64,000 nt of DNA, from assembly GCA_964036195.1 (NCBI GenBank), contig OZ038453.1, positions 27,718,997 to 27,782,996 of the forward strand. The letters run 5' to 3'. This DNA is from Sphaerolaimus hirsutus. Lineage: Eukaryota; Nematoda; Chromadorea; Monhysterida; Sphaerolaimidae. The number at the start of each line of letters is the position of its first letter. Within the stretch, counting starts at the first letter, position 1. The position numbers were made by a program, and so were the translations under genes. Positions 680 through 52,240 of this stretch are shown one piece after another. The notes below the pieces were generated by a model, which saw only the letters and a program-made list of their open reading frames with translations, was not told the DNA's origin and did not search any database.

Positions 680-3600
680 CTGGGGGGGGGGGGGGTGAAT
701 TGATGTTTCTTGTGGTTTATTAAGTTAAATTTTTACAAAACTAAATTTCGTCCTTTTTTGTTGTTGTTTTTGTTGTTGAATTTTTCATTGAAATTGAAAT
801 TTCGCATTAAATTCAATTTAAATTACGAAAATTGTTCCTCACAGCACATCGAACAAAACGCCTCTGGTGAAATTTTAGTCCTAGTATCTTACACTAAAAT
901 TATCCTAGTAATGGTTGGGTGAATTAGGGTGAATCCTAGTAACACTGGGAGATTTGCCACCCTGCTGATAGTCACTATTCTTTGAATATTTAAAGCCTAA
1001 ATACTCCACTTCCAACATTAAATACAAATTACCGTATTTCCTAGAATTAACCCCACTTAAATTTGACTACAGAGCAGATGAAAAAATAACCCCTCGAAAT
1101 ACCCCCGTAAATAACATCATGTATGCGATGTAAACACAGGATGTATAAATTGCTACCAATTTGTATCGCAGCTACACATGAACTAGTTTGTGTAGATGTA
1201 TAAATACGTGTATATGTCCAATTATAGCCGTATTTTGTCACATTTATTACCATGTAAAAGCCTATTCTTAACCTTCAGAAAACTTCTGGCAAAATAATAA
1301 ACCCCAATCAATTCAACCCCCTCAAAATTTGCCGAAGAAACAATAAACCCCCGGTGGGGGGGGGGGTATTCCGTCCGAGGAAATACGGTAACAAACACAC
1401 ACACATAACCAACATTAGCCTGATTACTCGACCTGGGCAAAGTAGCCCTTTTGTGGACCCCTGTACCAGCATGCAGCATCGAGTGGGTCCAGTCTTTGGC
1501 ACCACTCTTTTCATTGTTGTGCATGTGCAGGCCAATGTCGTCGGAGGTCAGTTCTGCGGGGGCACTCCCGGACACTGGGATGTGAGATGGAAAATGTCAA
1601 ATGTCAAGTGTCAGGGAAAGTGTCAAGTGTCATGCAAAGTGTCAAAAGTCATGCAAAGTGTCATAAGTCATGGAAAATGCTGTGCAAAATGGCAACTTGG
1701 TTATTTTGCACAGCATTTTCCACGACTTTTGACACTTTGCATGACTTTTGACACTTTGCTTCACATTTGACATTTTCAATGACTTTTGACACTTAACATG
1801 ACATTTTCCATTCCCATGTCACTTGACACTTTCCAGTTCACTCGCCAGTGTCCGGGGGTACCACCTGACGTAGACCGCTGGTAGAAGTGCGCCCCAGCCG
1901 CTGCCCCATTGCCAGTGCTCTGTCTCTTCTCGTGGGGTATGGTGTACTTATCCTCCACAGAGGGCCTTGCTGATTGGCCAGGTGCCAACTTTGCGTGTGC
2001 GCTCAGGTGGGGGAATCTGCGTGATGAAATGCTGTTTTCGTGGAATGCAGTATGCATATGGCAGGTATTTATCAAGCACATAGAAAAGGTACACAATTGT
2101 TGTTGCCCCGGCCGGGACTCGAACCTGGGACCTAACACTATGCGTGTGAATGCTCTAACCGACTGAGCTACCAGGATGCCACATTTTGCACCACTACAAA
2201 CTTCAGCAGAAAATTTTGGTAAAATTCAGAGTAAAGCACAGCACATAATAGCACAGCAATATAAAATCAAGAACTACAAAGACATTATTTTATCAAATAA
2301 TTTGTATCTCCGGTCCGGTCAATTAGGACACTGGCTGTTTGGTGGCACACTCACCAAAATTCCATATAAGTTTTGAACGAAAAAATGGAGGTCATCATCT
2401 GTATTGTAAAAAAACAGACGACATTTTGCACCATCCCCAAAACCTCAACTAGCAAACCAAAACCAAACAATCGAAACGCTCACCCCTTTACCAACTTCTT
2501 GGGCGGCAGCGGGGGCGGGGGAGGGCTGCTGCAACTACTGCCCCGTTCCAGCCGGCCACCCCCCTGCCTCTGCTCTGTGCTCTGAGACTCACTCGCACTG
2601 TGGCCTGTGGGGGGGGGGGGGGGGGTGAGTGCATGCACAAAGGAGCAGCCCATACAAGTGGGACGTAGGTTCCCTAGACATGTAAACCGCTGGTCATGTA
2701 AACCCGACGGGCGTGTAGCAGCGGCGTATATGTTACGACAAGAAAGTGGTTACTTGTCACTTTTCAACTTTTAGTGTCACTTTTTTCCTTATTTTTAAGT
2801 GATGATCAGTTGTAAGTAAAGTAAAAAAATGACAAGTCAAGCCCTTACTTGTCCCTTTTTGATTTTACTTATAACTGATCAACACTTTAAAAGTGAAAGT
2901 TACGAGAAAAGTCAAATTTGTGACAAGGGTATTTTGAGGGCGGGGGGTATCTATAAAATACGTACAAGAACACATATTTATGTAGATCAATTAGTGTTTT
3001 TATTTACGGCCATGTACCCTGCCCGCTTAACATTTGCGCCAACTACATGTCCACCGGGTCTACATGCCCAGCGGGTCCCATGTCCTCGGGCACAGGATCA
3101 CAAACAGACCCCCCCAGCACAGACCTTTCCCCCCCTGCCCCCTTCTCAGCTGCACGTGCCCATACAGGTGCAGGGCGGTAAGCGGCAGTCGAACCTGCAG
3201 CGCAGCCCTCTGACTGGGTTTACGCGTTTGCGTCGCGTGTAGTTGGCTGGGCGACCGCTCTGTGCTTCCTGGGGTAGAGTCGAGTTCGAATTGGGAGAGC
3301 TGTGGGGGGGGGGTTATGGTATGATATGAAACACAATGTGAACTTGTACAAGGCTATTTTGATGGGGGTTTGCCCAGCCCCCCCCCCCAAAAAAAAAAAA
3401 TGCTTGTACTGGAGATTACCCATCTGGGGATAAATTTGGGTGACTTCGCCCCGTTTTTCAGCCAAGATCGCTGATTTTTGCAACTTAACCTCCATTTTCA
3501 CTTTCAAAATAACCTATTTTGAATTTTAGCGTTTTAGAGAAAACTAAATGTTCGCCGTTATGCATTCAAGACGAAACTGGCATCTCGGCATAAGTATGGA

Positions 3601-6600
3601 CACTGTCTAGGGTTCAGACGATATTTCGTATCGAATTTCGGATATCGACTGTTTTTTTCATATCGAAAATTTTGAGAAAATAGCGAATATCGATATCGAA
3701 AATCGAGTTTCAGAAAAAAATCGAATATCGATATCGAAGTCGTATCGTCCAAACCCTAGCACTGTCTTTGGCGTGATCTTCCCTCACCCCTTCAAAAAGC
3801 TACACCACATCTACCTTACTACCATTTTCCCAACCCCACCCCCCCCAACCCACCACCCTCCTAGTACTCTCACACTTATTCTTCTCGGCCAACCCCCCAG
3901 CAGTCAATTTATGCGTAATGTTCAGCAGGGTCACATCCGTGGAGGGGTGCCTCAGTAACAGCTTGCAGTGCTCGGCGCGGTCGCACAGGGCGCACACGTG
4001 CAGGGGGGTGTCCCCGGTTGAGGTGGGTTTGTTCGGGTCCGAGCTGGGGGGGGGTGATGGAATGGGTGCAGGCGGTGGGGGGGGGGTAAATTAGGGTTGG
4101 GACGATATGACTTTTCGATATCGATATTCGATATTCGATATTTTTTTCTGAAAGTCGATATTCGATATCGATACGATATGGACCCTCGATATTCGATATC
4201 GATATTCGATATGAAAATATGCTCGATATTCGATATCGATATTTCGATATTTTCGATATTTCGATATTTTAGTACAGCGGGGCATATTGTATTTCCATTT
4301 GGACACAAACATGGTTGATAATCTTTTTAAATGAGGCTCACAACAGTTGAAATGAGGTAATGAAATGAAAACAGGATGAATCAAATTATATAAGGTGAAA
4401 AATTATTAAGCAAACACTTCAGGTCATACTTGTGACTAGGGGTGGCTGGTTTTTTACATTTTTAAAAGGTTGGTATTTTAAAATAAACAGCCAAATTTTT
4501 GAGCCATGCTGCCATGCAAAGGTTTGGTGAAATGGTTTCCTTGTGATGCAGTTTGCTGTGTTAATATCATATATTTTGTAAGGATGTGTATACATTACCC
4601 TTGATATCCTACCTTTGATAGCTCAATGTGAAAATAACATGGCATTTATATTAGGGTCCAAACGGGATCCCGATCCCGATCCCGGATCCCGTGAAATTCC
4701 GGGATTTACCAGTCCCGATCCCGATCCCGATCCCGAAACCCCAATCCCGATCCCGATCCCGATCCCGAAATCTAAAAATACCAATCCCGATCCCGATCCC
4801 GATCCCGAAAATTTTCAAATCCCGATCCCGATCCCGAGAAACTCCCAAGTCCGGGATCCCGATCCCGGAAAAATTAGTGGAAATAATAAAAAGTGAAATA
4901 ATGACGTTTTTGCATGCAAAAATGTGCAGGCAAACCCCCAGCGTCAATTTTATGCCACTTTTCTGGCATCCAACAGTGTTTTGAGACCTTTATGAACAAC
5001 TGTGAATGCCAGAAAAATGGCCAAAATCTCTATCCCTAGAACCCAATCCCGATCCCGGAAAAATGCCAATGCCAATCCCGATCCCGATCCCGTGACCCCA
5101 ATCCCGGCCAATCCCGATCCCGATCCCGATCCCGAAATCTCAAAAAACCAATCCCGATCCCGATCCCGAAACCCCAATCCCGATCCCGATCCCGAAATCT
5201 CAAAAAGTGAATCCCGATCCCGATCCCGATCCCGAAAAGTCAATCCCGTTTGAACCCTAATTTATATATGATATATTACTTTGTGCATTCATAAGCATAC
5301 GTGTTTGGCTGCAGCATCCACTTTTTGTTGGCTTCAGCCACTTTTTATGGGATCACAAATACCTGAAAAGAATACCAGAATATCGAAAAATATCGAAAAA
5401 ATGGTCGATATCGATATTCGATATTTTTTCAAAATTTTCGATATCGATATTCGATATGAAAAAATGGTCGATATCCGATATTCGATATTCGATACGATAT
5501 ATCGTCCCAACCCTCGGGTAAATACCTACCTTTACCGAGGTAGCCCCCCCCCCCGAGGGATTTAAGAGTGACAGGCTTCAAACTATGATGAAATATTGAA
5601 AATGAAGATGAAAATGGATGATAAAATATTTAGACGAGAATCGAAGAATTAAAATCAAAAACATTCCATCCAGAAGGATAGTACAACAAAGACAGTATTA
5701 TCCACTTCCGAAGCCAGTATTTTATAAACGTTATCTGCGCTGGGCATAAGTGTTGTGAATTTTGCAAATTTCCGGTTCCGGTTCTCGGAATTCGTTTCCA
5801 AAACAATTCTGTCCCTGTACCGGTTCTTCAAAATTTCCGGCTCCGGTAGTAAACCCGGTTCCGGTCATCAGTCCCAAAATAAACTCGATCCCTCAATTCA
5901 GTTCCGTTCACTTTGAATCAGTGCCAATTCCCAACCCCAGTCAAACATGCCAGCCTACCCCCCCCCCCCCCCCCCCAACCCCAACCCACCCCCCACACCC
6001 ACCCGTGTGCGAGCAGTAGTTCGAGGATGGGCAGGCCGCTGCACTGCGTGTCGGCGCGGATCAGGTGCACCAGCGCCGTGTCCCCGCTGCCCGAGCCCTC
6101 CTGGGGGGGGGGTATGGGGGGTTGTTTTTATCAATTATTTTTTATTATTGTGTGTTATTTTATTTGAATTTAGTGATTAATTGAGCAATCAATAGATTTT
6201 GTGTGACTATTTTTCCTCATAGGATGCAAAGAAAAACATGTCACACTAATGCAACCCCACTTTTCACATGAAATATAGAATATTTGAAACGTTGCTTTAT
6301 ACGTGACACAATGAAGATTTCGATTCAACAAATAACTCGAAAAATACTGGTGATTGAAAAAAGGGTTTAAACGACCACGTTCAAATGTTTAAAAATCTTT
6401 AAAAAAACGGTTTTATATTAATAGTTGAGTAAGAGAATACGGGTAAATCAGACAGTACTTTGTGGTTACATAAATATAGCCATACAATAGCTTTGGAGCC
6501 ATGGGATAGCATTAGTAGTGGTGATAACTGCCAAAAATATCGATTTTGTTGTCTATGTTGCGTATATCGTGTTTTGTCAAATGTTTGCCACTTAAACAAA

Positions 6601-9600
6601 TATGTCCATGAAAAAGACATCAGATGCTCTTGTAAAAAAAAACGTTAAAAGCCAACACTAAAAAACACAAAAAAATCCTCTAAAATCCGTACCAGTGACC
6701 AACCCTATGCGTCCACTGTTCACTGAAATCATATCCAGCGACTATAGCAGCCAAAATAACACCCACATCCCTTTTAGCAATGGCCGTGCGAACTGCAGAG
6801 TGGGGAAAATGGCAACTCGTATCCGCGAACTTGCGTTCCGCGTACTTGCGACCAATGAACGACATTCGTTCGTCGCTGCGACAAAAAAGGCGGAGTTTAC
6901 GGGAGAACTGCACACAGTTGTGAGGGGAATTTTTTTTGAAAAGTTTCATATTTTAAGGAATTTTTTTAAAAGTATTTGTGGGAATTTTTGCCTTGAAATA
7001 TAAAATATGACTATCAATTATCAAATCAATTTTTTTTGCAAATTATATGACTATCAAATCAAATCATTTGCCGTCACTAATTGTTGATGTAAATACTGCA
7101 ATTACAGATTTGTGTCGCTACGAAAATGCGGCAGAATATCACAAAACTGATAAATAATATTTATACCCATTTGAGTGTACCGAAATGAGCTGCGTTAAAA
7201 ATGCTTTCTGATAAATCATTCCAGCGGATTCAAATGATTACAAAGAAATTTATCGGTTATTAGGAATTCGGGCGTCAACCAGTGGGGTCAGGCCAGTTAC
7301 GCATGTAAACCCATCACGCATGTAGACCCTTTATAGATACATTATGCCAGCAGGGGTAAGAAAGGGGGTAGGTAACCCCACCCCAAACTGCCCAGCTATG
7401 TATCTTTCTATCCCAGAGGCAATTTTTTGGCGACTTTCCCCTAAACTGCCCCCAGCATGCCACATATAGTGAAATGCGTGCCGTGTCTACATGCGTGATG
7501 GGTTTACATGCGTAACGGCACAATGCCAACGAGTAATCAGTGAAATCCGTGGAAATGAAAGAATAACAAAAACTGAGCATTTCTAGAATAATCAATAATA
7601 ACCAAAATTACAGAAAACAAACCTGGAACAATCTGGGGTAATTTTCTCGGTGCATGCCAAATTTTTCTCCAGGACCCCGTTCAAAATCTTGTTGCCAACT
7701 GCTAACGGCACCTGAAATGAAGTGACAAGTTTTTCACACCGAAATGAGTTTCTTTTCTAAATCATAGCTCCTGTAAAGCAGCGTACAAAATGTGAAAAGT
7801 CCTGTATAAATGTAAAAATGTAAAATGTAAAAATGTAATAGTCCATGTAAAAACGTACGGTGACATTTAACATTCTTTCATAAACACTTCTTTATAATAT
7901 TTCCTAATTATTTCACAGATTTTACATTGTGACCGTTGCATAAATGTCTAATAAAAAATGGGTAAAATATGATTAAGTATGCAACCCTATTTATGTCGTA
8001 AGCAAGCAGTGCTGAATGGGGCTGGGACAATATGACTTTTCGACATCGATATTCAATATTTGAATCTGAAACTCGATATTCGACATCGATATGCGTCCTC
8101 AATATGGATATCGATTTGGACATAAATATTTTTTTCAATTTTTTTCGATATCGACACTATATATACACAACTTTCGGTATTCTTCACGAGTACGACACAC
8201 CATCCCTCCCCCACCTGCTAGCCCCCCCCCCCAACAACATACCCTCTACCCCTCATTGCCAGTAGGATTCAAACGGGATCCCGATCCCGATCCCGGATCC
8301 CGTGAAATTCCGGGATTTAGCATTCCCGATCCCGAAACCCCAATCCCGATCCCGAAAACTTTCAAATCCCGATCCCGATCCCGAGAATCTCCCAAGTCCG
8401 GGATCCCGATCCCGGAAAAAATAGTGGAAATAATAAAAAGTGAAAAAATGACATTTTTGCGTGCAAAAATGTGAACGCAAACTCCCAGCGTCCATTTCTG
8501 GCATCCAACAGTGTTTTGAGACCTTTATGAACAACTGAGAATGCCAGAACCGTGACGAAAATCTCTATCCCTAGACCCCAATCCCGATCCCGAAAAAATG
8601 CCGATCCCGATCCCGTGACCCCAATCCCGATCCCGATCCCGAAATCTCACAATACCAACCCCGATCCCGAAACCCCAATCCCGATCCCGAAATCTCAAAA
8701 AGTCAATCCCGTTTGAACCCTCATTGCCAGCTCCTCCAACAACCCCCACCCCCCTCACGAGCGTCTCCCTAGTGCCGAGGGTGTCCAACAGTAGCGACTG
8801 CACCCTGCTGAGCTGGACGCCGAGTCTGCGGTGACCCCCCGCGCACTGTATGCACAGCACGGCGCCCCAGTGCACGCACACCCAGTGCAGTTCTGCAACA
8901 TGGGGGGGGGGTAAAGGGAGGGGGGTTAAAAGTACTGAACTTTTTTTAAAGAAAATGTAAAGGTTTTTATTTTACTCACACATTGAGTACAGAAAACGTA
9001 AAACGTTTTCTTTCCTGACGAGTATTTATTAGGACAATGTCCTATGTTTGTCACTTTCTGTCTGGCAAAATGACGTTTTCTGTCCCCTTAAAATACGTTT
9101 TCTGTACTCGCGTAATTTGAAAAAGTACGCGAGTACCGGTATTTTTTCGGGAGTACCTTATTTACGCAGTACGCGAGTATACGTATTTATCGAGTAAACG
9201 TAATTAAGTTTTCTAGTGATGTAAAAGCGCCATGGCGCTAGCGCCAAAGCAAAAAGCGCCATGGCGCTTTTGGCGCTTGACGCCTTTTTGCTGTGGCGCC
9301 ATTGGCGCTTGGCGCTGTGCTACGGAAAAGCGCCATGGCGCTGTTGGCGCTTGGCGCTATGATGCCCTGGCGCCATTGGCGCTTGGCGCTGGCATTTTAA
9401 AAAGCGCCAAAAAAGCGCCAAGGAGTTCAAAAAATAGATCATTATTTTATGTTAAAAGACCTTGTGTGCAAAATTTTCACAAGTGAATGTGTTACTGCAC
9501 ACACAGCAAAAAATGGATCCGTGAAGCGTGTGGAAGCGGGCTGGATGCGCGTGAAGCGGCGCGCTTCCACACGCTTCCACCAACATCACGAGATTCTGGG

Positions 9601-12600
9601 TGAAGTGTCTTCCACACGCTTCACCTATCTTCACCACGCGCTTCACGCGCATCCAAACATGTGGAAGACACTTCACGGCGCTGGCGCTTCCACACGCTTC
9701 CCCCGCGTATTCATTTGCGTGGGAGCGCCATATTAAGAAGCGTGAAGTGCCTTCACGCATATTTTTGTGATGTGTGTGGAGGCGCTGGCAGCTTGGTGAA
9801 GCGTTCGGGAAGTGTTGGCGTGAAGACACTTCCCGACGCTTCACCGCGCATCCACACACCCATTTTTTGCTGTGACATGTATTCCAGGAAGAACAAACCC
9901 TCCACTTGCTTATTTTGCAAGGATATTCAAAAAAAATTCCCCAAATAATGGGCCTAATGGTTCCCATCACAATTCAAATCTTGCTCACGAGCCGACGAGT
10001 ATTGCATTGTGTTGAAAATAAAGTTTTGTTGTTGTTGAATAAAAAGGTAAATAGAATGGTAAAATGTCTGAATGCTTCAAACTGTAGAGGCCCAAAAGTA
10101 AATAGATGTCCAAAAGATGTCTGGAAGAATCACATGGTGCACTCCCAAGCACCTCCAGACAGAAAACCCTGTTTCGACCCTTCGAACAGACAGGGGATGA
10201 TTTTGGGGCGGGTGCCAGGGTCTCATCAGTGCTCAGCACCCTTAGCCTACATAACCTACTTAACCTACTACAAAGCCTAACCGACAGGACCTAACCAATA
10301 CCTGCATTAGCATGGCTGCCTTTTGGGCAGCAAAAATTTTTGGCGCTGGCGCTATTGGCGCTTGGCGCCAACATCCTCTGGCGCCATTGGCGCTTGGCGC
10401 CGTGTTCTAGTAAAGCGCCATGGCGCTTTTGGCGCTATTTTGCTGTGGCGCCATTGGCGCTTGGCGCTCGCATGCCAAAAGCGCCATGGCGCTATTGGCG
10501 CTTGGCGCCAAAAGTCTGGCGCTTTTTACATCACTAGTTTTAACAATTATTGGTTAAAGAAGCTCAAAGGTTGGCTTTGTGAAGGATGTCAAAATCGCTA
10601 GTTTTGGTAATCAAAATCGCTAATTACGGAGCACTGTGCACACTGAGGTATTTGTGTCATTTTTTTCAAACGGATGGTGGGTTATTTGAAAAAGTTATTT
10701 TAATAAAAACCGTTTTGAGTTTTAAAACGTTTTTGATTGCAGCAGATGCGTCTTTCAATCATTTGAGACTGGAACTATTGATGAGAATACAACACTTTTT
10801 GACACCAAAATCCATACGTACGCGAGCACAGGACCCCAATCAGTGTTTGTTTTATTGAATAATTGCTACGATAAACCTGGAGCAATGTTTTTTTTGCACT
10901 TGCAATTTCCAATTTCGCAAATCGAGAAGCACAAAAGCGTTTGATCAGTGAAAAGTATAGTGCGAAATGACAAGTAAAAAGTCAAAGGTGAAGAAAGGTG
11001 TTAACTTCGAAAATTAATTCGCGTTTAACGTTTAACTTCTCATTTCACTTCTTCAATGTTTCTTTTTACGTCTCAAATTGCGGAATTAACCCCTGACAAA
11101 CCTTCATTGCCGCCACAATCTGCACACTCTGAATTACCCTCCCTGTTCAAAATAGCCTCAATTATCATCTGTTTAGTGGCCACGCCCACATCCATAACAT
11201 CTTTTATCCCAGTATACATTATATTGTTTACGACGCGAGAACTTTGCGTGGCGAAATTTTGGCACATGTCCAAGTTTGTGGAATGTTGCAGATGACCGGC
11301 GGGTAAGTTTTCATTGTGAAACAGGTCTTTTTGAGCTGACATTTTTGCCTCGCTGATGCCGTTCACCCAGCTGCGCATAAATAATAATGAGCATTTCGAT
11401 TAAATGCCGATGGTAGAATATTTTTGTCACGATATATTAGGGCTCAAACGATATGACTTTTCGATATCGATATTTTTTTATAACGCGATATTCGATATCG
11501 ATACGAAAGCGACCCTTAATATCGATAGTTCATATATATAGTCGAAAATAGTTGATATTCGACACAATACATCCTTTGATCTCCTACAATAAATACCCCA
11601 AAAATAGGCCAAAACGCACCGTTAACAAGTGATTTTTAAGGCGAAAATGGGTAAAAATGCGCTTTGAGCAAAAAAATTGGAACAAAATTTCACAAAAATC
11701 GCTCCAGATAGCTGGGCGATCTGGGGAGACCCCAAACCCCAACCCCCCCCCCCATTTGGAGACCCCAGGTAGTATTGCAAAGACAAACACAATGCACAAA
11801 CCGGTCAGCCTCCAGTGCGTTCTCCGCATGTAAATTGTAAGTTCTGTCGTAGCACACCAAGTCGAAATATTTCTCACTGGGGTTCAAGCGTTTGATGTCG
11901 CACGTTATTAGATTTATCACTGTCGGTGCTTCTGATTCCTGCGAGGGGGAATGGTTACAAGATTGTGCAAAAAATTGGCTGTATTGTTTGTAATATGCTA
12001 TGTAAAATGATATGTTTTGATAGAAAAAATCATGATATAATTCGAAAAAAAATATTGAAGGTTTTTTACATCTGTATTTAAAAAAATAAAACGGTTTTTT
12101 TTCAAAAGCTACCAAATATGGTTTTAAGTACTAGGGATGGAAAAAGCGCTTTTTTCAACGGCCCCGCTTTTTTAAAAAGCGCTGGGACTAGGGTTGGGAC
12201 GATATGACTTTTCGATATCGATATTCGATATTCGATATTTTTTTCTGAAAGTCGATATTCGATATCGATACGATATGGACCCTCGATATTCGATATCGAT
12301 ATTTCGATATTTTCGATATTTCGATATTTTAGTACAGCGGGGCATATTGTATTTCCATTTGGACACAAACATGGTTGATAATCTTTTTGAATGAGGCTCA
12401 CAACAGTTGAAATGAGGTAATGAAATAAAAACAGGATGAATCAAATTATATAAGGTGAAAAATTATTAAGCAAACACTTCAGGTCATACTTGTGACTAGG
12501 GGTGGCTGGCTTTTTACATTTTTAAAAGGTTGGTATTTTAAAATAAACGCCCAATTTCTCGCCCAAAGCCATGCTGCCACGCAAAGGTTTGGTGAAATGG

Positions 12601-15600
12601 TTTCCTTGTGATGCAGTTTGCTGTGTTAATATCATATATTTTGTAAGGATGTGTATACATTACCCATGGATGTGTATGCATACATTATATTACCCTTGAT
12701 ATCCTACTTTTGATAGCTCAATGTGAAAATAACATGGCATTTATATATGATATATTACTTTGTGCATTCATAAGCATACGTGTTTGGCTGCAGCATCCAC
12801 TTTTTGTTGGCTTCAGCCATTTTTTATGGGATCACAAATACCTCAAAAAGAATACCAGAATATCGAAAAATATCGAAAAAATGGTCGATATTCGATATCG
12901 ATATTCGATATTTTTTCAAAATTTTCGATATCGATATTCGATATGAAAAAATTGTCGATATCCGATATTCGATATTCGATACGATATATCGTCCCAACCC
13001 TAGCTGGGACCATTGCGCTTTTTTTAAAAGCGGTTGAAAAAAGTCGCTAGCCATTCCTAATAACTACAAAACAATTTTACCCATCCAAGTCGCAAAATTC
13101 AACCGAAAATATCGCCAAAAAATGCAATTTCACAAGAGCCAATGCCACTCACATCAGAATGTGTCAATAAAAAGTGTCCACTCTCAACCCTGGCGCGTCT
13201 CTTGAGCCAAGGTCTATGCAATTTGCCGGCACTTTTTTTCCACACATCGCCTTCCACTTTGGCGCCGCACACACTCGTGTCCAATGGTTGCGCAGCGGTG
13301 CTCGCTGAAAAGAAAAGGCCAACTGTTTTCGATTAAGTTGCAATCGTGTTTGCGTTTTTAGATTCGATTCAGAAGAGTTTAGAATACCGTATTACCTCGA
13401 ATTATCCCCCCCCCCCATCGAATGATCCCATCCTCAAAATAGGCTGGGGAAATAATAACCCACCCCCCTCAAACGATGTACATCATGTGTGCAATAAAAA
13501 TTTGCCCGGGCCGGACATAAAAATTTGCCAGGAATGGCACTTTTCTAAAGCGATTTTCTAGGCACTTTCAAAATTTTTTGCGCGCAAGCGCGCAAATTCC
13601 CATCCCATCGTTTGATGTGTATTTTCAGGAGCTTAAAAAGCATCATAAAAGTGTCTAACATGGTCTTAGTCCTATATATAGGTCTAAATCGGTACCTAAA
13701 TAGAGTATACGTTGGCGCCAGCGCCAACGCCAATACTGCCATGGCGCTGGCGCCTACAAATGGCGCCAGCGCCAAGGCTCCATTCCTTTACAATAGGGCC
13801 AAATTTTAGGGGGGGGGGGGCGCCGCCCCCCCCGTTCGCCGGGCTCCGTAAACAATCCGCCCCCCCCCGCTCAAAAATCCCGCGTACGTCCCTGAACTAC
13901 ACATTAGGGTTCAAACGGGATCCCGATCCCGGATCCCGTGAAATTCCGGGATTTAGCAATCCCGATCCCGATCCCGAAAATTTTCAAATTCCGATCCCGA
14001 TCCCGAGAAACTCCAAACTCCGGGATCCCGATCCCGGAAAAATTAGTGGAAATTATCAAAAGTGAAAAAAAACGACGTTTTTGCATGCAAAAATGTGAAC
14101 GCAAACCCCCAGCGTCCATTTTATGCCACTTTTCTGGCATCCAACAGTGTTTTGAGACCTTTATGAACAACTGTGGATGCCAGAACATTGACCAAATACT
14201 CTATCCCAAGACCCCAATCCCGATCCCGAAAAAATGCCAATCCCGATCCCGATCCCGTGACCCCAATCCCGGCCAATCCCGATCCCGAAATCTCAAAAAA
14301 CCAATCCCGATCCCGATCCCGAAAAGTCAATCCCGTTTGAACCCTAGTGACATCTGACATTTTACAGAATCTGGGGGTGCCCACAGTTGACACCCCCCAA
14401 CCCCCCCCCCCACCAACCAATACGGTAGTATGGAGATTGACATATATTTTAAGTTGACACTTGCACAGGCAGTGATAACAATGAAAAAGATGATAAAAAC
14501 ATGAGCAATGATTAAAAAAAAACATGATTTGCAAAGTGGATTTGCCCAGCCGAAAACAATATCCCAAGTGGACAAGCGACCGCAAAAGTAGAGCGTGTCC
14601 GGTAAAGCTTTGAATGGTAAATTAGTAAACTATAGTAAGTACCATATTTCCTCGAAATACCCCCCGGGGGGTGATTGTTTCATAGTGGTCCCGAGAGGGG
14701 GGGGGTTAAACGAGGGGGGGGTATTTCGAGGGGGGGGTTATTATTTCACAAGAAGATTTTTGAAAACCAAGTATGAAATTGGCGTCTGAAACGTACGCAG
14801 ACGTCAAAAAATGCAACAAAAACCGCCATTTATAAGGTTCTGTAGACTAATATTAGTATGTAGATGGTATGTACACTGTTCTAACATGACACCGACATTG
14901 TTTTAACGTGTGTTCTGCACTACGCAGAACACAAACTGCAGTATTTGTCATGTACGTTCTCTTTACAGTCAATTTGGGGGGGGGTATTTCGAGGAGGGGG
15001 GGGGGGGTGATTGTTTCATAGCGGTCTCGAGAGGGGGGGGTCAAACGAGGGGGGGGGGTATTTCGAGGGGGGGGGGTATTTCGAGGAAATACGGTAAATT
15101 AGCAAAATAGTAAACTTCCAGGCACAAGCAAAATTCCCCTACAAAATTCCCCCACCCCCCAAAATTCCCCCGTCACATACCCCACCACTTAAACCACAAC
15201 TTAACAACCCCCCCCCCCAAAGTGCCCACCTATACCTGCATTGGCTGCGGGGAGGGCCGCGGGGGCGGAGCTTAGCCCCGATTTGGATCCCCTGCTGGTG
15301 CCGCGCGCTGATTGGCTGGGCGAGCGCACGAACGAACTGCCTGTGTGAAGTTAGACACTGTGGAGGTACATGGAAGCACATTACCCCAATATTATATACT
15401 ACAGCAACATATGACGGCTTATTAACCCATGGTAACATATATAAATGGATACTTTGTTACTAAAAATGCCACAAAACCAATGAAAACAACGACCAATGTC
15501 AATTTGTGTGTGAAATTGCGCGCTTGCGCGCAAAAATTTTGCAAAATACCTAGTGGTACTAAAAATTTCGGCCGATGTTTTTAAAAAAAAACATTTCGGA

Positions 15601-18600
15601 CGTCATGTTTTAAAAAAAACAACGTTTTTTAAATAAAAACGTTTAAAAAAACATCGGACAACCCTAGTTGTGCTTTCTTCTATTTAGGTTCTAGTCCTCT
15701 AGGATTTCAGATATACGGATAAAAACTTTTTCTGCACAACCCGGGTTTTTTAAACGTCGAGTTCAAAACGTAAAACATCTCAATAATCGGGAGAACCGGT
15801 ACATTTCAAATTTTGGAATTTGAACAGTGATACCTATACTCGTTATGCAGATTTTACGCGGTTTTTCAACGCGAAAATGAAATTTTGAAGCCTGAAGATG
15901 CCATCATATACATTTGACAACGAGAATCCATGTACAAAATAATCGATCAATATCTCTTTGCAATTTTAAGAGCTCAGAAAAAATGCAACGCACTTGGAAT
16001 AACCTTCACTGGGCTGCTGTCTATTTTCTCACTTTTTCCAATGTCATTTTTAACTTGGCACTGTTCCAAATTTGACACAAGTGCCTGTTCTAAAGTCCTC
16101 AAATGGCCCCTCTCTAGATCCCTTTCTTTGCGCATAGAGTTCACTTTGGAAATTAAATTCTCCAAGTAGTGATGGGAATAGTCGTTGAGCACTTGCAGAC
16201 TGTCCGAGTAAATGCTGAGAAAAGTAAATGCTGTAAAAGGTATTTAAAAATTGCACAATTAAAATTTCTTATAATTGAAGGCAAAACCTGGAAGACTTTC
16301 TACAGACAATAAAAAACTCGGGGAATAAATTCGTGGGGGGTTAATCCAAGGGGGGGGGTAATTCGAGGTAATACGGTAAGTCAGAGGTCTCCTAGGGGGG
16401 GGGGGCTGCCCCCCCCCAAATCGGCCAGCTATCTATTTATCCCGGAGGCCGCTCAGCTATCTATCTATCCAGAGGCAAAATTTTTGGCTACTACCCCCAA
16501 AGACCCCCCCCCCCCAAATCGCTCAGCTATCTATCTATCTGGAGGTGTTTTTGAGAAATTTTGCCCCAATTTTCGCTCAAAAACACTCATTTTCGCACCT
16601 TTTTATAGTTTTTCACCTTCAAAATCATGCTTACCGGCTATATACATGGTTATATACCGATTTTTAGCCACTTTATACCTACTTTTGGCTACTTTTAACT
16701 GATTATTAGTGATGTTTTCCCCTTTCTGCCTTCTTAACCTTGAAAAAGCCTATATATTCTGCCCCCCCCCCAGAAAATTTCCAGCTATCTATCCCTCTGG
16801 AGGAGCGATTTGCTATCTATCCCCCCCCCCCCAGAGGAGCGATTTGCTATCTATCCAACCCCCGCGAGGGCCAAAATCCTGGAGACCCCTGCGGTAAGTC
16901 ACCTCTGATGCACGGCGAAGAAGTCCACAAACTGCTGGACCAAGTCGACGCCGAGCCGGTCGGACAGCTTGCTGCAGGACACCAGGTACTGCGAATGGGG
17001 GTTTCTTGGTCACCTTGCAAGTGCAAACGTCCGGTGCCAGTGCCAGACATTGTAAATGACCCTGTAAAATGTCAAATGCCATGTTAAAGATCCTGTAAAA
17101 TGTCAAGTTCGTGCAAAGTGTCAATTGTCATGTAAAATGCACTGCGAAACGGTTAACACGTTTGCCGTTTCGTATGGCATTTTACACGACATTAGACATT
17201 TTGCAGGGCATTTTCAACAACTTTAGACATGTTGCAGGGCATTTTCAACAACTTTAGACATTTTGCAGGGCATTTTCAACAACTTTAGACATTTCGCAGG
17301 GCATTTTCAACAACTTTAGACATTTTGCAGGGCGTTCTCCCTGACTTTAGCCACTTTGCATGACATTTGCCATTCAACAAGGTCCGGGACTGGCGCCAGT
17401 AACACTGTCCAAGGCGAAAGAATGCAGCCCCACAGAAAGCTGTCGAAGTGCACCCACCCTGCAAATGTCCAACTGGAGGGAAGTCCTTTCCGGGAGCAAG
17501 TGTTCTGCCACCTCAGCCGGACTCACTGTGCTGCGGGTCCAGCCTGATTCCTGCGGAGGTTTTTAAAAAAGTGTTGTTTTTAAAAAAGACATTTTCTTAA
17601 AACTGGATAGTAGAGACGATTTTTTGGAATGTAGATATAACTGAAAAATACTTTACTTTACTGAATCTAAAATAGTGGATACATAAATGTAGATAAATGT
17701 TTTCGGTATTCAAAAGTATGGGAAACGCTTTGTGGCTATAAAATGACACACTGCATCGCAAAAAACGCGTGTTGAAAAGTCAAAATTAATGCAGAAAATT
17801 ATCTTTGGACCGACACTCTGCATTCTTACACACGAAATGAGAGCGCAATTGTACTGTTTTTTTAAAGTTTTAACTTTGTTTGTTCTTTCGGAACGTGTGA
17901 CGCCCAAAATTAAACATCTTTTAAAAAAGCATAAAAGCATAAAAAAAAGAAATTTAACCTTTGAAGATTGTTTCAAATGTCTCTCAGCTTTGGCCAACTT
18001 ATTATCATATTCTTTTGCACACTTTTCCACGGCTTTCCTCAACTCTGCCTTCTCTTTTATATCATTTTTTGCTAAATTTTCTAGAGGAAATTGTAGCAGA
18101 TTCTGGATATTCTGCGCTAAATTTCCAGTTTGTGTAGATAAATCGTTGAACATTATTGAGAACTTCATCAGAGCAGTTCCTGGAAATGAGAATGAATGTT
18201 ATATTAAGAATAAATTGTGTTAATTCAACATTCGTATTGTTTTTATGGGCCCCCACACACTGGATGTCAACTGAATTCGTGTCAACTAAATGTCAACTGA
18301 ATTTAAGTGATACTGTGATTTCAACTTATCTATCTGATAGAGCATAGTTAATTTTACATCATGACACTTCATTTTCATTGTTCCTGTTAAGTGTGATGCT
18401 TTTTACAAACTTCTTGTTTTATTCAATTGACACTGAGTTGACGCGAATTTGCGATGTCAACAATGTGTGGGCACTATAACGCAAAATAGAAGGTCAAAAG
18501 TATTCATATTTTAGTATTCTTACTCGGGGTGGATTTTGCCACTGAAATAAACAATACATAAATAAAAACAACACAAGTTGCAAAAAAACCGCTCCCGAAA

Positions 18601-23440: not shown

Positions 23441-26400
23441 CTGAAAAAAATGGGATTGAATGAAAAATAATAAAGAGACAGGCAGTAATAAATACTTGTT
23501 GAACTTGATACATTTTGTCTCATTTTGGAAGCGTGCCAACGATTATTCAATCATGTGATTTTTTAAAAATGAAAAAGTTCTTTGTTGTGCATAAGTTTAC
23601 GCATAACTTTCCAAATCACAGCACTGAACGTTTTCCAATTTTCACGAAAATTGCATGCATTAAATATCATTGGCACGCTTCCTAAGCCTAAGACCCCTTT
23701 TACACTGCACTTGTGTGACGACAATAGATCTTACTCGTCACAGACTGTTTTGTGATGACAAATCTATTTTTAGCAAGTTTCATGAGTGTGACCACTGGTG
23801 ACCATCGGCAACAAGTAGCGACCCTTTTTCAACCATGCTCATTGTGACGACTAGATCAAATATTTTACTTGTCGTCACACTCTCGCAATGTGACGACCAC
23901 TTTTTTCTTTTTTATCGGTGCACCTGTCGGTCCCCGACAGAGGCAATTTGTTTTATAAACATGTATAACTCTTGAGCAACACACACGATTCATCTGAAAT
24001 TTGACATGCGTACACACCTAGGTGGTATGTATTTATACTCTACCACATTCACTCATGAATATGGAACTTTTCACTTGACTTATGGAACTTTTTCAAGAGT
24101 TGTCGGAGTCGTCACAAAAATGCAGTGTAAACGCTGTCTAAGTCACTGGAGTATAGTGATTGAAAAAATGACGTCATTTCATTACTAGGCTAAGGACCAG
24201 TACTCATCTTTACCCGGTGCTCATCTACTGCTCATTTACGGCAATTGCCCGGTAACCGGTGCCCGGTGGGGGGCACGATGGGCACTGCGAGGGGTCTCCA
24301 AGGGGGCGCATGCCTATTCCGCACATCGGCCTATTCCGCATTTTGGCTCATCCCGCACATTTACCTGCCCATTCCACATTTTGGCCTATCCCGCATCTTG
24401 CGGGTGTAATGTGCGAGATAGGCAGTGTGCGTGATGGGTTTGTGTGCGGGATAGGCCAAAATGCGGAATGGGCAGGTAAATGTGCGGGATGAGCCAAAAT
24501 GCGGAATAGGCCGATGTGCGGAATAGTGCACCGTCCTCCAAGGGGGGCAGTAAGCCCCCCTCCCCCTCCAAACCGCCCAGTTATCAATCTATCCCGGATG
24601 CTATCTACTTTTAGCAATTTTCTCCCCTTTCTTTGACCTACACCTGGAAAAAGTTTATATATTGAACCCCACAACCCCCCCCCCCATTTTTTCCAGCTAT
24701 CTATCCCTCCAGAGGAGCGATTTGCTATCTATCCAACCCCCCACAGGGTCAAAGTCTAGGATACCCCTGGTACAGGGTAAATATGAGTACCGGGTAGCGC
24801 AAGATGAGTACCGGGTAAAGATGACCACCTGTACAGTGCCCATCTGGGCCCCCACACACTGGATGTCAACTGAATTCGTGTCAACTAAATGTCAACTGAA
24901 TTTAAGTGATATTGTGATTTCAACTTATCTATCTGATAGAGCATAGTTAATTTTACATCATGACACTTCATTTTCATTGTTCTTGTTAAGTGTGATGCTT
25001 TTTACAAACTTCTTGTTTTATTCAATTGACACTGAGTTGACACGAATTTGCGATGTCAACTAGTGTGTGTGGGCCCTCAGTATCACTAACCCAAAGTTAT
25101 TGGCGTTCAATTGTGTTCCCTGTTTTCTTATTTTCTTTGGTGGCGCGCCTGAACATCCAGCGACACCTGGAAAAAATTATAATCATATTTTCAGACAAAA
25201 AAAAAATCCTGAAAAAGTGAAATTGAACTAAAAAATGAAAACACCTTCGAGATCAAGAGTGTGTGGCGATGCGTCGGCACTCAGCTGAGGCATTTCTTCA
25301 AATGCAGACGCTATTGAAGGGGTTTTTATCGTCACAGCGTTTATGACGTCACCAGTTTTCGGTCGACCCTGAAATTCACGTTTTATTGATAATTTCCTCC
25401 AAAAATTTCACAAAGTCATACAAATAAAATGTATGACTTGACAACAACACATAATTCGTATAAAATTTTTTTAAACAGGCATTAATTTGCATTACAATGC
25501 ACTACAGGCACTACAGAGCACTAATTTGCAATGTGAAGTTTAAAGTAAAGTGTCAAATGTCATTTAAAATGGCATACAACTTTGTCACATAAGGAAATTG
25601 TCAAAAATTCAGTAATAAAGTCCTTCCTTTTTTATTATTTTGACATTTTACATGACATTTGACACTTTACTCCACACTTTTCAGGGTGCGGACCTGGTGG
25701 CAGTCCCAAGCCCTGTAAAGTGTAATGTAAAGTGTCAAATGTAAAGTAAAGTGTCAAATGTAAAGTCAAATGCAAAGTAAACTGTCAATTGTCATGCAAA
25801 GTTCACTAATAAAAGTTTTCTTTTTTGTTTTGATTGACACTTTACTTTGCATTCGACTTTACATTTGACACTTTACTGTACACTTTACAGGGTTTGGGAC
25901 TGCCGCCTGCCCCCTGGCTCACCTTCCTGAACGCAACTCCACTTTCACTCGGATTGAACTCATTAATGCCATACGCATTTTTCCAATAGTAAGTTATCAC
26001 CGCGAAATCGCCGCACATTTCATTTATTTTGGCGTTTCTCGCCCGCGCAATGTGTATTTTCTTGACGAATTTGTAATTCGAGTCCGGGTGTTCGTAGCGT
26101 TTTTGCAGCACTTGAATGTCGTAGTCCGCCGGCGGCTGCGGGTCGATTTGAATCGATTTTGTCACAGATTGTATACTCGGCAGACACGATACTCTACAAA
26201 CAGATAGGAGTTATGTCTTCGGCTGGCAGACGGCCAGCCGAGAACTTATGGAAGACGTGATGACGACGAAGTGACGACGTCATGAAGACGATGTGATGGC
26301 GACGAAAGTGATCACGTCATGATGGAGTGTTTCTTCCAGAAAAATGTACGGCGTAATGTCATCCGAGTATAATGGTGTTGGGACGAGCCTGTGCCATTAT

Positions 26401-29400
26401 GCATCTAAAGCCATTATGCATCTAGAATCAGCACACATTTTACTATATCGGGCATGCTGAAAATATGCAAAAAAACACATGACATAGTGATTTTAAAGAT
26501 GAAAATCTATATAAAGTATGAAAATTAGTGACTTTGGGTGAAAATAAGGCTAAAATTGCTCAAAAGTGCTCCAGATAGCTACGTAGCTAGGCAATTTGTA
26601 GGGGGGGGGCTGTTCAGAGGAAAGTAACACCAAAAATTTGCCTGTGGTAAAGATAGATAGGTAGGCGGTTTGGGGTGGGTTACCCGCCCCCTTTCTCACC
26701 CATGCAGCTATAATGTGTCTATAATGGGTCTAGATGCATAATGGGTTTAGATGCATAATGAGTTTAGATGCATAATAGGCCTGACCCGTTGGGACGTAAA
26801 ATGTCGCAGTCGAATATCGACGACTTTTTCATATCGACAATTTTAAAAAATACCGAAAGTAGAGTATTTTTGCATATCGAATAGTGGATATAGACTATTT
26901 TTGCATATCGAATAGCGGATATCGATAATTTTTTCCTATTGAATATCGAAAACGAGGGTCCATATCGATATCAATATCGAGTTGAATGGGAAAAAAGTCG
27001 ATTATCGATATCAAAAACTCATATTGTCCCACACAACCCTATGTGAAGCAAAAAATTGCCCATTAAAGTTGGCAGTGAGACCCGAACCCGACAAGCAAAT
27101 TTTTTTGACCCTTAACACCACAAATACAGTGGGATATTTTTACCCGACTCGAGTTATGTTATAGACACGATAACCGCTACCCGTCCCAAAATGTTTTGAC
27201 CCGAAACCCGACAGTTCAAGTGTAAAATCTATCAAAACCCGAGCCCAAGGCACCGACCCGATTGAGTACATCGACCCGCACTGCCTGTCCGTTGCTCTCG
27301 TCCAGCTTGTAGTATCTGAGAGAAACGAATTCAGGCGTTCATTTCTAGAGGTCGATAACTCCAAAATGTCGATAATTGAGTAAGCAATAAGTTGCATCTA
27401 CAATTGGTCCCACACATGTTTCAGAATTTCCCATTCTTTTTCAATATCTATTGCCCTTTTTTAAAGCGTTACATTTGGACACTTTTGGAACAATCGAGAT
27501 TTTCAAAAAAATAATCAGCAAGAAGTCGATTATTCCATGCTGTATCGAGCAAAATGTCATCGATATAATTTTAAATATAATGTACAGTAATAGTGTCAAA
27601 TGTCATGTAAATTGTCGATAAAATTGAAAAGACTACCGTATTTACTCGAATAATTCCCTCGGGAAATTAATTTTTCCTCAGACATTTTTGAGGGGGGAAC
27701 TACTCAAGGGGGGGAATTATTCGAGTAAATACGGTAGATTACTAAAATTTTAGCATTTTACACTACATTTGACAATTGACAGGAGGTCAACCAACAATCA
27801 ACCACAAAAACCAATCTAACCTCGCATGTCCAGCGGGACGAGCCCAGGCTCCATTTGAGTCGAATCTGAGTGGCGCCTGGTGCCAATCTCAGACCCTGTA
27901 AAAAGCCCTGTAAAATGTCAAATGTCATGCAAAATGGCAACTCAGTTGCCATTTTGCAGAGCATTTTCCTTGACTTTTGACACTTTGCATGACATTTTAC
28001 ATTTTACAGGGCTTGTTACAGGGTCTGGGACTGGCGCCTGGCTGCGTAGACTGCAAACGCTCAGCACAAATGTCACCCCCGCGTTTGCGCGCCACTTTTG
28101 CGGAACCGAGGTGCACAGTCTGTAGGGAATGTTTTGACGGGTTGTTTTGTTGTTTTTTTAGGCTGGGTGGTTGAATATTCAGTTTTTCACAGCATTAAAA
28201 AACCTTAATCGTTTTCGATTCAATCCGAGTTGAGTTGGCGGTTTGGAGTTATGTTCAGTAGCCTTGAAATTCAGAGTGGGCTTCTGTGGGAGATTTTGCG
28301 ATAGCCTCGGTCAACTGCAGTTGACCGAGGTTAAAAATAACACTGGTAAACTCAGATGCGCTCAGAAGCTGAAAAATGAGTTTACCAAATTCTTAGTTGA
28401 CCGTTAGTCTATGTCAGAAGCCCACTCTGAATATCAAGGCTACTGAACATACCGTATTTCCTCGAAATACCCCCCCCCTCAAAATGGACACTATGAACTT
28501 ATAACCCCCCCCCCAATTTACTGTATAGAGAACGTAAATGACAAAGGCTGCGGTTTGTCATCCCGGCAATGCAGAACACACGTTAAAAACGATGACTCTG
28601 TTATGTGAGAACAGTGTTTGTACGTCTACACACTTATAAATGTCTTTAGAGTCTTATAAATGGCGATTTTTGTTGCATTTTTCGACGTCTGCGTACGTTT
28701 CAGACGACATTTTAGTACTGGGATTTCAAAAAATTTCTGGCGAAATAATAACCCACCCCCCTCGAAATACCCCCCATCGTTTAACCCCCCCCCCTCAAAA
28801 TCCTCACTCTGAAAAAAACCCCGGGGGTATTTCGAGGAAATACGATAACTCAGTCGAATCGACTTTACGCGTTGCGCTGGAAGCGTGCCAACGATATTTT
28901 CATTTTCATCAACATAATAAAAATAGCAATTAAAACATTTTTCTTACACGTAATCACAGCAATAAATATTTCATCTTTTCACAAAAATGGCATGCTTAAA
29001 TTATCATTGGCACACTTCCAACGTGAGAGACATAATTACCACGGGTGTAAAGTGTAAAAAATGATGTAGTACAGTTTATTAAAAAAAGTGCCAGCGGAAA
29101 ACGCACTTGTTTCTGGGCACTCGCACTGCGCCCAAGATGATTTTGCACGCGGAATGCATATCTATAGCTTCGTTCTTATATATCGGCCATCTGCCCATGT
29201 GCGTCGGCGAGTTTTCTTGCTGAAAAAATATTAAAAATTGTATTAATTAAACACAAAAAACTACCGTATTTGCTTGAATAGTTCCCCCCACTCGGATAAT
29301 CCCCCCTGTAAGATGAGTGAGGAAATACGAATTCCCCCCCAAATAACCCCCCCCTTAAAGATATTTCATGAATAAGTTGTCCCAAATTTTAACAAAAAGG

Positions 29401-36148: not shown

Positions 36149-36721
36149 TTTAGCTATGGTAGAAAGTTCGGAAAGTAATTTAGCCCATTGACGCACAATG
36201 AATCGACGCGAGAAAAGTGTGCACGGGCAAATTTTGGCTGTCACGCCGTATGATGTCTTGGCAACTTGCCAACAGATTTGGATACAGCCCAATTACACCC
36301 GAAATCTGAGTTGACACAGACCAGTTAACACACGTGTGTCAACTAGTGTGCGGGATATTTCCATTCCGAACTATTAGCGGCCATTTCTGATCGCTAAATT
36401 GCATTCTGGGGCGATCGTCGGTGTCGCGTGCGGAAATCCTGCATATTTTATAATACGCAGCCCAGAAACTTGGCAGCAAGCCAAGTCATCGTACGTGGCC
36501 CGATCCGAATTTTTCGATTGGCACAGTGCCAAATATTGGGTTGCGTTGTTTACTTTGTTTGGTATTAGAAGCGAACAGTTTCTGTAAATTCGCCGCTTTA
36601 CGTCTTCGGCTCGAATTTACCCGATTTTTTCGTCGTTCACATTTTTGAATTGAATTGCAGAAGTGTGTTCTTTAGGCAAATACTAACTTTTTTAACTGAA
36701 AATACATGTGAGATCATGGGG

Positions 36722-36913
36722 CACCACCAGACCCTGTAAAATGCTTTGAAAATGTAAATATTATGTCTTGCAAACATCAAGTGTAAAGTGTAAAGTGGCA
36801 ATGTAAAATTGGATACAATTGGTTAACATAAATTACCAATTAATATTTTACATGATTTTTGACTCTCTGCATGACATTTCACATTTTGCAGGGTCTGGGA
36901 GTGGCACTGAGTG
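36722..36913. mobile_element. Palindromic family copy upstream of gene 2
   Basis: Ends CACCACCAGACCCTGTAAAA and TTTGCAGGGTCTGGGAGTGG. It is the first family member outside the recognised genes. Confidence 0.72.
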
Positions 36914-37865: not shown

Positions 37866-38155
37866 GGAGCCAATCCCAGACCCTGTAAGATGTCAAATTT
37901 CATGCAGAGTGTCAAAAGTAAAAATGTCAAAATGTATAATGTAAAAGTCCAAATGTTAAGTGCCCTGGAAGATGGCAAATGTATGTTTGCTATTGTTCAG
38001 GTCATTTTACATGACATTTGACATTTTCAGCACATTTCACAGGCATTCTACATGGCTTTTGACACCTTGCATCACATTTGCATTTTACAGGCCATTTTAC
38101 ATAACTTTTGACACCTTGCATGACAGTTGACACTTTACAGGGTCTGGGACTGTCC
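37866..38155. mobile_element. Palindromic family copy, extended right arm
   Basis: Ends CCAATCCCAGACCCTGTAAG and TTACAGGGTCTGGGACTGTC. The right arm has extra CATTTTACATGACATTTGAC units. Confidence 0.72.
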
Positions 38156-38401
38156 CTTGATTCATTTCAATTTTACAATCTTTATCATTTTGTTGCATTA
38201 TTTTGTTTGATTTTGCTCAAGCTTTTTCAGCTCATGCCGTGTCAAGCATATTGAAAATTGATGCAGTTTCGAGAAAAAATATTATTGCAAAAATGGAAAA
38301 TTTGGTTCAAAACTCTGAAAATCTATGTAAAATGTGAAATGTGAAGTTTTAGTATTTAAAACTATATCAGTGATTTTTTATATTACAGGACATTTCACTG
38401 G

Positions 38402-39255
38402 CCCAGGTGCCAATCCCACACCCTGTAAAGTGTGAAGTAAAGTGTCAAATGTCATGTAAAGTGTCAATTGTAAAGTAAACTGTAAAGTAAAGTAAACTGT
38501 AAATGTAAACTGTAAATAAATGTAAAGTAAACTGTCCATTGTCATGCAAAGTTCAGTAATAAAATCATTTTATTTTATTTTATTCCAAAATAATTATAAA
38601 ATAATAAAATGGACCATTTTACAAAAAATTTACAGAAATTTTACAAAAAATCAGAATCTTGCATGCAAGGTCAGAAAAATGTGATAATTAGACCTAAACA
38701 TTGTGACATTGCGCAAAACTTGTGACAAATTGTTCCGTTACTTTGCAAAAGTTGCATGCAGTAGGTATTGTTAGCTAGTTGCAAGTGTCAAGTTACAATT
38801 ATCGATAAGAATGGTTTGCATTTTCAGTAGAAAGATTACTGGAGTGTGCTGGGCGCATTTGTAAAACATCATGCAAAGTGTCAATTGTCATGACAAATGT
38901 AGTAAAGAGTCGATTGGCATCTCAAATGTCAAGCAAAGTATAATTGTCATGACAAATGTCGTGCAGAGTGTAAATTGTGTATCTTAATCTTATGTTTTGG
39001 TATCCAAACCTTATTTTTTGGTATCCAAATCTTACGTTTTTGTATCCAAATGTTCACATAAGATTTGGTTACAAAAACAACGAGATTTGGATACGAAAGA
39101 TAAGATTTGGATACAATTTGCTTTACAGTTTCCACTTTAATTTATATTTGTCATGACAATTGACACTTTACTCAACATTTTCATGAAAATTGACACTTTC
39201 CATTCCAATCCATATGACATTTTGACACTTTACATGGCTTGGGACTGCCCCAGCT
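38402..39255. mobile_element. Long palindromic family member with inner ATCCAAATCTTA module
   Basis: Ends CCAATCCCACACCCTGTAAA and ACATGGCTTGGGACTGCCCC. The inner part (38980-39115) is a separate inverted pair of GTATCCAAACCTTA-type words, also present in the 63.1-kb copy. Confidence 0.6.
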
Positions 39256-52228: not shown

Positions 52229-52240
52229 GCGCACACAGAA

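What the first reader, a model, noticed from the sequence alone, without database searches (positions are those of the whole stretch)
1554..1864. An entire ASAP intron is one palindromic element (introner-like)
Seen: exon 19 ends CGTCAG and exon 20 begins AACTGACC, in matching phase. The 311 bp between them are one palindrome of the CAAAGTGTCAAAAGTCATG family found across the window. The element's left end gives GT, and its right end CCCCCGCAG gives the acceptor. Established: introners are transposons that create introns by carrying or completing splice sites. Inference: this intron arose by insertion.
Basis: partly seen in the sequence, partly recalled or inferred. Interest (0 to 1): 0.92.

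Follow-up and report, generated by a model that had tools for sequence, protein, structure and literature searches.

The report
Foldback transposon forming a whole intron
One copy of a common palindromic transposon sits exactly between two coding pieces of an ASAP gene, with intron-type GT and AG ends, so it most likely landed in an exon and is now removed as an intron, a known but rarely documented way for animals to gain introns.

Summary
Bases 1554-1864 are one long palindrome (fold z -19.9) on the sense (minus) strand of an ASAP gene, starting GT after ..ACGTCAG and ending CCCCCGCAG before AACTGACC. Both flanks score as coding in the frame the junction demands, strongly for exon 20, weakly for the end of exon 19. 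With that acceptor no GT in exon 19 upstream of the element keeps frame. The family has at least 14 other two-ended copies in the window, with ends like G[G/T]GCCA.TCCCAGACCCTGTAAAA and a probable short direct duplication at a CWG target, resembling the published NuwaI group (PMC4482050). This suggests a mechanism: insertion into an exonic CAG gives CAG|GT...CAG|, and splicing restores the old mRNA. At this locus the acceptor side carries two extra bases. I saw no other copy forming a whole intron, but did not map each against gene models. So: an ordinary transposon apparently spliced here, not a shown introner family. Splicing, an empty orthologous site and a genome-wide count could not be tested: no genome, RNA or eukaryotic relatives.

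The parts
1554..1864 (-). inferred intron of ASAP = one palindromic (foldback) transposon copy plus one CAG of the proposed target
   Evidence: sequence; folds z -19.88 and -19.95; frame enumeration
1865..1867 (-). CAG at the end of exon 19, first copy of the proposed target
   Evidence: read from sequence; CAG is also plain splice consensus, so not independent evidence
1554..1556 (-). CAG at the intron end, second copy of the proposed target; supplies the 3' splice AG
   Evidence: read from sequence; it lies 2 nt further out than the family register predicts
1845..1864 (-). donor-side terminal inverted repeat GTGGTACCCCCGGACACTGG; its first two bases are the 5' splice GT
   Evidence: CAG|GTG matches the family profile CWG|GKG; some inner conserved columns differ
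1557..1578 (-). acceptor-side terminal repeat CCAGTGTCCGGGAGTGCCCCCG, 2 nt longer than the family consensus; gives a C-rich tract before CAG
   Evidence: open frame fitting the phase of exon 18; coding score best of six frames, 4.8% of 1057 matched open stretches as high; its last 20 codons alone are weak (18.5% of 3000)
1432..1553 (-). start of exon 20 (its 3' end was not determined)
   Evidence: coding score best of six frames, 0 of 1413 matched open stretches as high; first 20 codons 0 of 3000
2484..2604 (-). exon 18 (proline-rich, ..PPPPPLPPKKLVKG), donor GTGAGC
   Evidence: open frame and splice motifs only; its codon score is not distinctive
3902..18874 (-). upstream ASAP exons: 11 segments placed (BAR, PH-like, ArfGAP, ankyrin); model incomplete
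   Evidence: Pfam BAR_3 3.3e-13, ArfGap 2.8e-19, Ank 1.7e-09; no PH family reached E 0.1
17034..17396 (.). family copy e17, inside a larger ASAP intron (about 17457 to 16989) between two BAR exons
19157..19312 (.). family copy e19
25697..25906 (.). family copy e25, about 15 nt from a putative GTGAGC donor on the minus strand
27880..28037 (.). family copy e27 (CCTGG on both sides)
32041..32218 (.). family copy e320
32764..32934 (.). family copy e327
33367..33537 (.). family copy e333 (ends degenerate)
34293..34474 (.). family copy e34 (CCAGG on both sides)
35821..36006 (.). family copy e35
36718..36907 (.). family copy e36
37867..38156 (.). family copy e378
38407..39251 (.). family copy e384 (pairing of its ends less sure); the only other copy with both MAG|GT and YAG ends
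58218..58544 (.). family copy e58
63096..63445 (.). family copy e63

Best explanation
A short non-autonomous foldback DNA transposon that duplicates a short CWG-containing target inserted into a CAG inside an exon of ASAP, oriented so that CAG lies on the sense strand. Insertion produced ..CAG-[GTG...element...]-CAG... The first CAG is the exon end, the element's first two bases are the GT donor, and the duplicated CAG is the 3' splice AG, preceded by the C-rich end of the element. Splicing out 311 nt restores the original reading frame. Shown: the palindrome, the family and its ends, and the coincidence with phase-matched junctions. Supported statistically: coding character of the flanks (strong for exon 20, weak for the end of exon 19) and direct duplication at the family's ends. 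Inferred: splicing itself, and that the site was empty before.
For: The donor is the element's first base; on the acceptor side only 2 extra bases and the CAG lie outside the family-type end, so there is hardly room for an older intron. A codon model trained on 12 other ASAP segments (566 codons) scores both flanks best of six frames in the needed frame; as a control, 11 of the 12 training segments do so when left out in turn, the exception being exon 18. With acceptor 1553, in-frame GT donors exist only at 1864 and 1861 (element edge) or inside the element (1822, 1792, 1783). Unspliced reading from exon 19 meets a stop at 1778, about 29 codons into the element. CAG|GTG fits the family profile CWG|GKG. 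Direct 3-bp repeats flank 7 of 14 copies against 3.1 with shuffled partners (p 0.007) or 8 of 14 against 3.4 (p 0.003), depending on allowed slack; 4-bp 6 of 14 against 1.5 (p 0.0003). 1 of 28 other copy-orientations has both splice-type ends, while this copy has them in the gene's sense orientation. The element is roughly 75-86% identical to relatives over its best 110-130-base matches and its own arms are 82.6% alike, so the insertion looks old while exon 20 stays coding-like.
Against: No RNA evidence. The joined exon 18-20 protein has no Pfam match and exon 19-20 no PDB match up to E 1, so coding rests on frame and codon statistics; the last 20 codons of exon 19 are not distinctive, and windows inside the element itself reach 0.16 in one frame. 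The donor CAG|GTGGTA is weak at +4 to +6 (consensus recalled). At this locus the best 5-bp match is 2 of 5 (3 of 5 with more slack), and in the family register the acceptor side has no CWG: the CAG lies 2 nt further out. CAG on both sides is expected of any intron. Both ends depart from the family consensus at several conserved columns. The duplication p-values come from 20 length/offset settings, uncorrected, several of them negative; in strict register the central base gives only p 0.06. Acceptor 1574 inside the element end is also in frame with donor 1864, and other in-frame pairs exist.
Confidence: 0.66

Rival explanations
1. The transposon inserted into a pre-existing intron, whose remaining sequence was later lost so that only the element is left.
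For: Copy e17 does sit inside a larger ASAP intron: about 469 nt, of which about 106 nt are not element.
Against: Here only two extra bases and the CAG lie outside the family-type ends, and the donor GT coincides with the element's first bases; two near-exact deletions would be needed.
Confidence: 0.1
2. The element is inserted in an exon and is not efficiently spliced: a disrupted gene copy or allele.
For: No RNA data; the donor is weak; the gene beyond the window was not seen.
Against: The element is diverged from its relatives, so the insertion is not fresh, yet exon 20 scores higher (0.19) than any of the 12 training segments in the leave-one-out control, and the frame fits precisely.
Confidence: 0.1
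3. Exon 19 and/or 20 is a mis-called open frame, and the palindrome simply lies in a longer intron or in the 3' non-coding part of ASAP.
For: No homology for these segments; the end of exon 19 is unremarkable; exon 18, which fixes the frame of exon 19, has no distinctive codon score; the ASAP SH3 end was not located, nor searched for by profile, in the window.
Against: The phase of exon 18 to 19 fits, and both segments score best in the single frame allowed, exon 20 beyond all 1413 nulls.
Confidence: 0.14

Closest known systems
Introners / introner-like elements (Gozashti et al. 2022, PMC9860276, results section read; Huff et al. 2016, seen in a reference list only, not held)
   Same: A TIR transposon copy whose ends coincide with both splice junctions, with one splice site from the element and the other from the target flank and an mRNA unchanged after splicing. 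The 2022 paper describes such sharing of splice sites between element and target duplication.
   Different: Introner families are found as groups of similar whole introns. Here one whole-intron copy was seen in 64 kb among at least 14 other two-ended copies, which were not seen to form whole introns.
NuwaI group of the PHIS transposons (PMC4482050, passages read)
   Same: CWG target; TIR starting G-[G/T]-G (published: usually GGG); reported from animals.
   Different: No transposase known for this family; short foldback copies only; the duplication signal here is statistical and its exact length (3 or more bp) is not settled.
Hairpin introner elements of Amoebophrya (PMC7789003, passages read)
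   Same: Inverted repeats at the intron ends and 3-5 nt direct repeats over the junctions; a hairpin joins the junctions.
   Different: Those were defined among non-canonical introns with varied splice motifs; this one is GT-AG and belongs to a dispersed transposon family.
MITE / foldback elements in general
   Same: Short, palindromic, multi-copy.
   Different: Ordinary MITEs are not defined by coinciding with introns (recalled).

Membership tests
[quoted passage not shown]
   family-type ends at 1864 and about 1557-1559 against inferred junctions 1864 and 1554
Introner | several introns of the genome consist of the same family | tested here: inconclusive
   one such intron seen in 64 kb; other copies were not each mapped against gene models; no genome held
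Introner | the sequence is spliced out | not testable with these tools
   no RNA data; only frame and codon statistics
Introner | site empty in relatives or other isolates | not testable with these tools
   no eukaryotic relatives in the collections on hand
Introner | TIR and/or target duplication (in many, not all, introner families) | tested here: met
   TIRs; CAG on both sides, which is also splice consensus
NuwaI (PHIS) | 3-bp CWG target duplication | tested here: inconclusive
   family: 7 of 14 (p 0.007) or 8 of 14 (p 0.003) exact 3-bp repeats by slack, 4-bp 6 of 14 (p 0.0003), 20 settings uncorrected; strict register central base p 0.06; exact length not settled
NuwaI (PHIS) | TIR usually starts GGG | tested here: inconclusive
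   30 ends: first G in 24; second G 12, T 11, C 4, A 3; third G in 27
NuwaI (PHIS) | DDE transposase plus Myb/SANT protein in most autonomous copies | not tested
   no autonomous copy was sought; the copies listed are 156-845 bp
MITE/foldback | short, inverted-repeat, multi-copy | tested here: met
   14 other two-ended copies, 13 of 156-363 bp and one of 845 bp

The most novel reading that the evidence does not exclude
A CWG-targeting (NuwaI-like) transposon is an intron maker by construction: because its target duplication can be CAG and its repeat can start with GT, an insertion into a sense-strand CAG of an exon yields a complete CAG|GT...CAG| intron whose removal restores the mRNA. It may have seeded many introns in this (probably animal) genome.
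Probability: 0.35. Interest if true: 0.75.

Novelty: new variant of a known kind. Interest (0 to 1): 0.55.

Why it matters
Where new introns come from is a long-standing question. The large survey (PMC9860276) reports introners from only two animal groups. This case offers a simple rule, testable genome by genome: a transposon group that duplicates CAG and begins with GT makes splice sites automatically. Introns flanked by CAG/CAG and filled by such elements can be counted in any genome that carries NuwaI-type elements.

Tried and rejected
Five-bp CCWGG target duplication: my first idea. It had support (8 of 14 copies with at least 4 of 5 bases alike, p 0.0019 on 20000 shuffles) and exact matches in e27 and e34, but position -11 is barely conserved and the finding's own site does not match (2 of 5, or 3 of 5 with more slack). 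A shorter duplication around CWG fits the end profile better.

CWG as part of the repeat rather than a duplication: in strict register the central base agrees directly in 6 of 7 A/T pairs and inverted in 1, p 0.06; duplication is favoured, not proven.

Relatives in viral contigs: 4 stretches hit by a 17-base motif, not read and taken as chance; none for a 23-base motif. Whole-genome count: impossible. Papers holding Harbinger, intron gain, splice and TSD: 0 in the library. Homology for exons 19/20: none in PDB up to E 1 or Pfam up to E 0.1.

Rows dropped: of 33 terminal-motif matches six were left out of the end profile (14360, 39509, 59581 and three internal repeats at 63135, 63360, 63391), and three ends were added by hand (both ends of e17, right end of e384), giving 30 ends. 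Two of the 30 (37167, 49082) have no paired end and are not in the 14 pairs.

Full report
What is there. The window (64 kb, 39% GC) comes from an organism with no genome held; its spliced gene shows a eukaryote, and ASAP and the transposon type suggest an animal (inference). A gene on the minus strand encodes ASAP: stop-free pieces match BAR_3 (3.3e-13), ArfGap (2.8e-19) and ankyrin repeats (1.7e-09) in Pfam. ASAP3 (9jih) is the best PDB match of the BAR piece (6.8e-07), and 2b0o (UPLC1) and 3lvq (ASAP3) of the ArfGAP piece. The ankyrin piece matched 368 PDB sequences; the 60 shown are designed or other ankyrins. No PH family passed E 0.1; the PH-like exons were placed by eye. Several neighbouring exons connect in phase with GT-AG borders, judged by eye.

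The finding. On the minus strand exon 18 ends ..AAAGGG|GTGAGC at 2484, and exon 19 runs 2016-1865 (phase 2 to 1). Then come 311 nt, and exon 20 begins at 1553. The 311 nt are one hairpin (DNA z -19.88; RNA with short flanks z -19.95) with the two splice sites at its foot. The sense sequence is CAG|GTGGTACCCCCGGACACTGG ... CCGGGAGTGCCCCCG CAG|AAC.

Are the flanks coding? A codon model was trained on 12 other ASAP segments (566 codons, counted). Left out in turn, 11 of the 12 scored best of six frames in their own frame; the proline-rich exon 18 did not. Exon 20 scores 0.19 in the needed frame (0 of 1413 matched open stretches as high) and exon 19 scores 0.01 (4.8% of 1057 as high); for both, the needed frame is the best of six. 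The first 20 codons of exon 20 are strong (0 of 3000 nulls as high), the last 20 of exon 19 weak (18.5%); windows inside the element reach 0.16 in one frame. With acceptor 1553, the in-frame GT donors are 1864 and 1861 at the element edge and 1822, 1792 and 1783 inside it; none lies upstream in exon 19. Acceptor 1574, inside the element's end, is also in frame with 1864, and other pairs exist with other acceptors. Read unspliced, exon 19 meets a stop at 1778. Neither exon has a match in Pfam or PDB.

The family. The end motif TCCCAGACCCTGTAAAA occurs 33 times with up to 3 mismatches (0.20 expected). From 30 ends the profile is C-W-G then G-[G/T]-G-[C/G]-C-A-N-TCCCAGACCCTGTAAAA; conservation falls to near background outside the C. 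For 14 copies with both ends, 3-bp direct repeats are exact in 7 (3.1 expected on shuffling, p 0.007) or 8 (3.4, p 0.003) by slack, and 4-bp repeats in 6 (1.5 expected, p 0.0003). These are the favourable ones of 20 length/offset settings, uncorrected; several others are negative, for instance 3-bp at offsets 5-6: 0 of 14. A 5-bp test gave at least 4 of 5 alike in 8 of 14 (p 0.0019). In strict register the central base gives 6 direct to 1 inverted, p 0.06. So the family probably duplicates a short CWG-containing target, exact length unsettled. The PHIS group NuwaI is described with CWG duplications and TIRs usually starting GGG, in 16 animal genomes (PMC4482050, 12 of 16 matching passages seen). 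Membership is a lead only: no transposase was sought or seen.

How it probably works. If the target is CAG on the sense strand and the element end is GT.., insertion gives CAG|GT..element..CAG|. The donor GT is the element's, the acceptor AG is the duplicated target's, and splicing yields the uninterrupted old sequence (here ACGTCAGAACTGACC). Against the neat version, the acceptor side has two extra bases before its CAG, and both ends differ from the family consensus at several conserved columns. The C-rich end resembles other acceptors of this gene, several of which have C-runs before CAG (by eye). Of 28 copy-orientations of the 14 other copies, 2 have MAG|GT, 11 have YAG and 1 (e384, plus) has both. 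So most insertions would not make introns; the finding's copy has the favourable orientation, as expected if non-spliced exon insertions are lost.

What it is not shown to be. I saw no other copy that forms a whole intron, but I did not map each copy against gene models. One (e17) lies inside a larger ASAP intron, and e25 lies about 15 nt from a putative donor. A dedicated introner family would need many whole-intron copies, which only the genome can show. Splicing and intron gain remain inferences.

Literature. Gozashti et al. 2022 (PMC9860276; results section read; passages) describe introners that share splice sites with target duplications in various ways and report, among animals and land plants, only two groups, both animals. 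Amoebophrya introner elements (PMC7789003, passages) share the hairpin and junction repeats. A 2026 tunicate paper (PMC13326754, passages) mentions introner transposons with weak splice sites. Listings of introner papers and a search joining Harbinger with intron gain (0 papers) showed no NuwaI- or CWG-linked introner; this covers open-licence papers only, judged from titles and abstract openings except for the papers named.

Change after checking: the NuwaI duplication row is now 'inconclusive', and confidence went from 0.68 to 0.66 because the weak exon 18 control and the element-internal windows are now weighed.

Noticed in passing
2104-2177 (-): tRNA-Met-like sequence (CAT anticodon; Rfam tRNA 34.2 bits) inside the intron before exon 19, same strand as ASAP; a real tRNA gene or a tRNA-derived repeat.
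   Followed up: no
53236-53427: A palindrome with a different core whose ends also contain CCAGGTGCC..GGCACCAGG, perhaps a related foldback family.
   Followed up: partly
25845-26210 (-), 29923-30276 (-), 43657-44028 (-), 23230-23550 (-), 51708-52361 (-): Open frames with protein-like stretches; the segments sent had no Pfam match up to E 0.1.
   Followed up: partly
14640-15096, 22383-22772, 49624-50078: Inverted pairs of about ACCGTATTTCCTCGAAATACCCCC bordering stretches of about 0.4 kb, another repeat family.
   Followed up: no
4650-5260, 8256-8700, 13900-14330: Simple repeats whose translations read RDRDRD or GIGIGI on the minus strand and PIPIPI on the plus strand.
   Followed up: no
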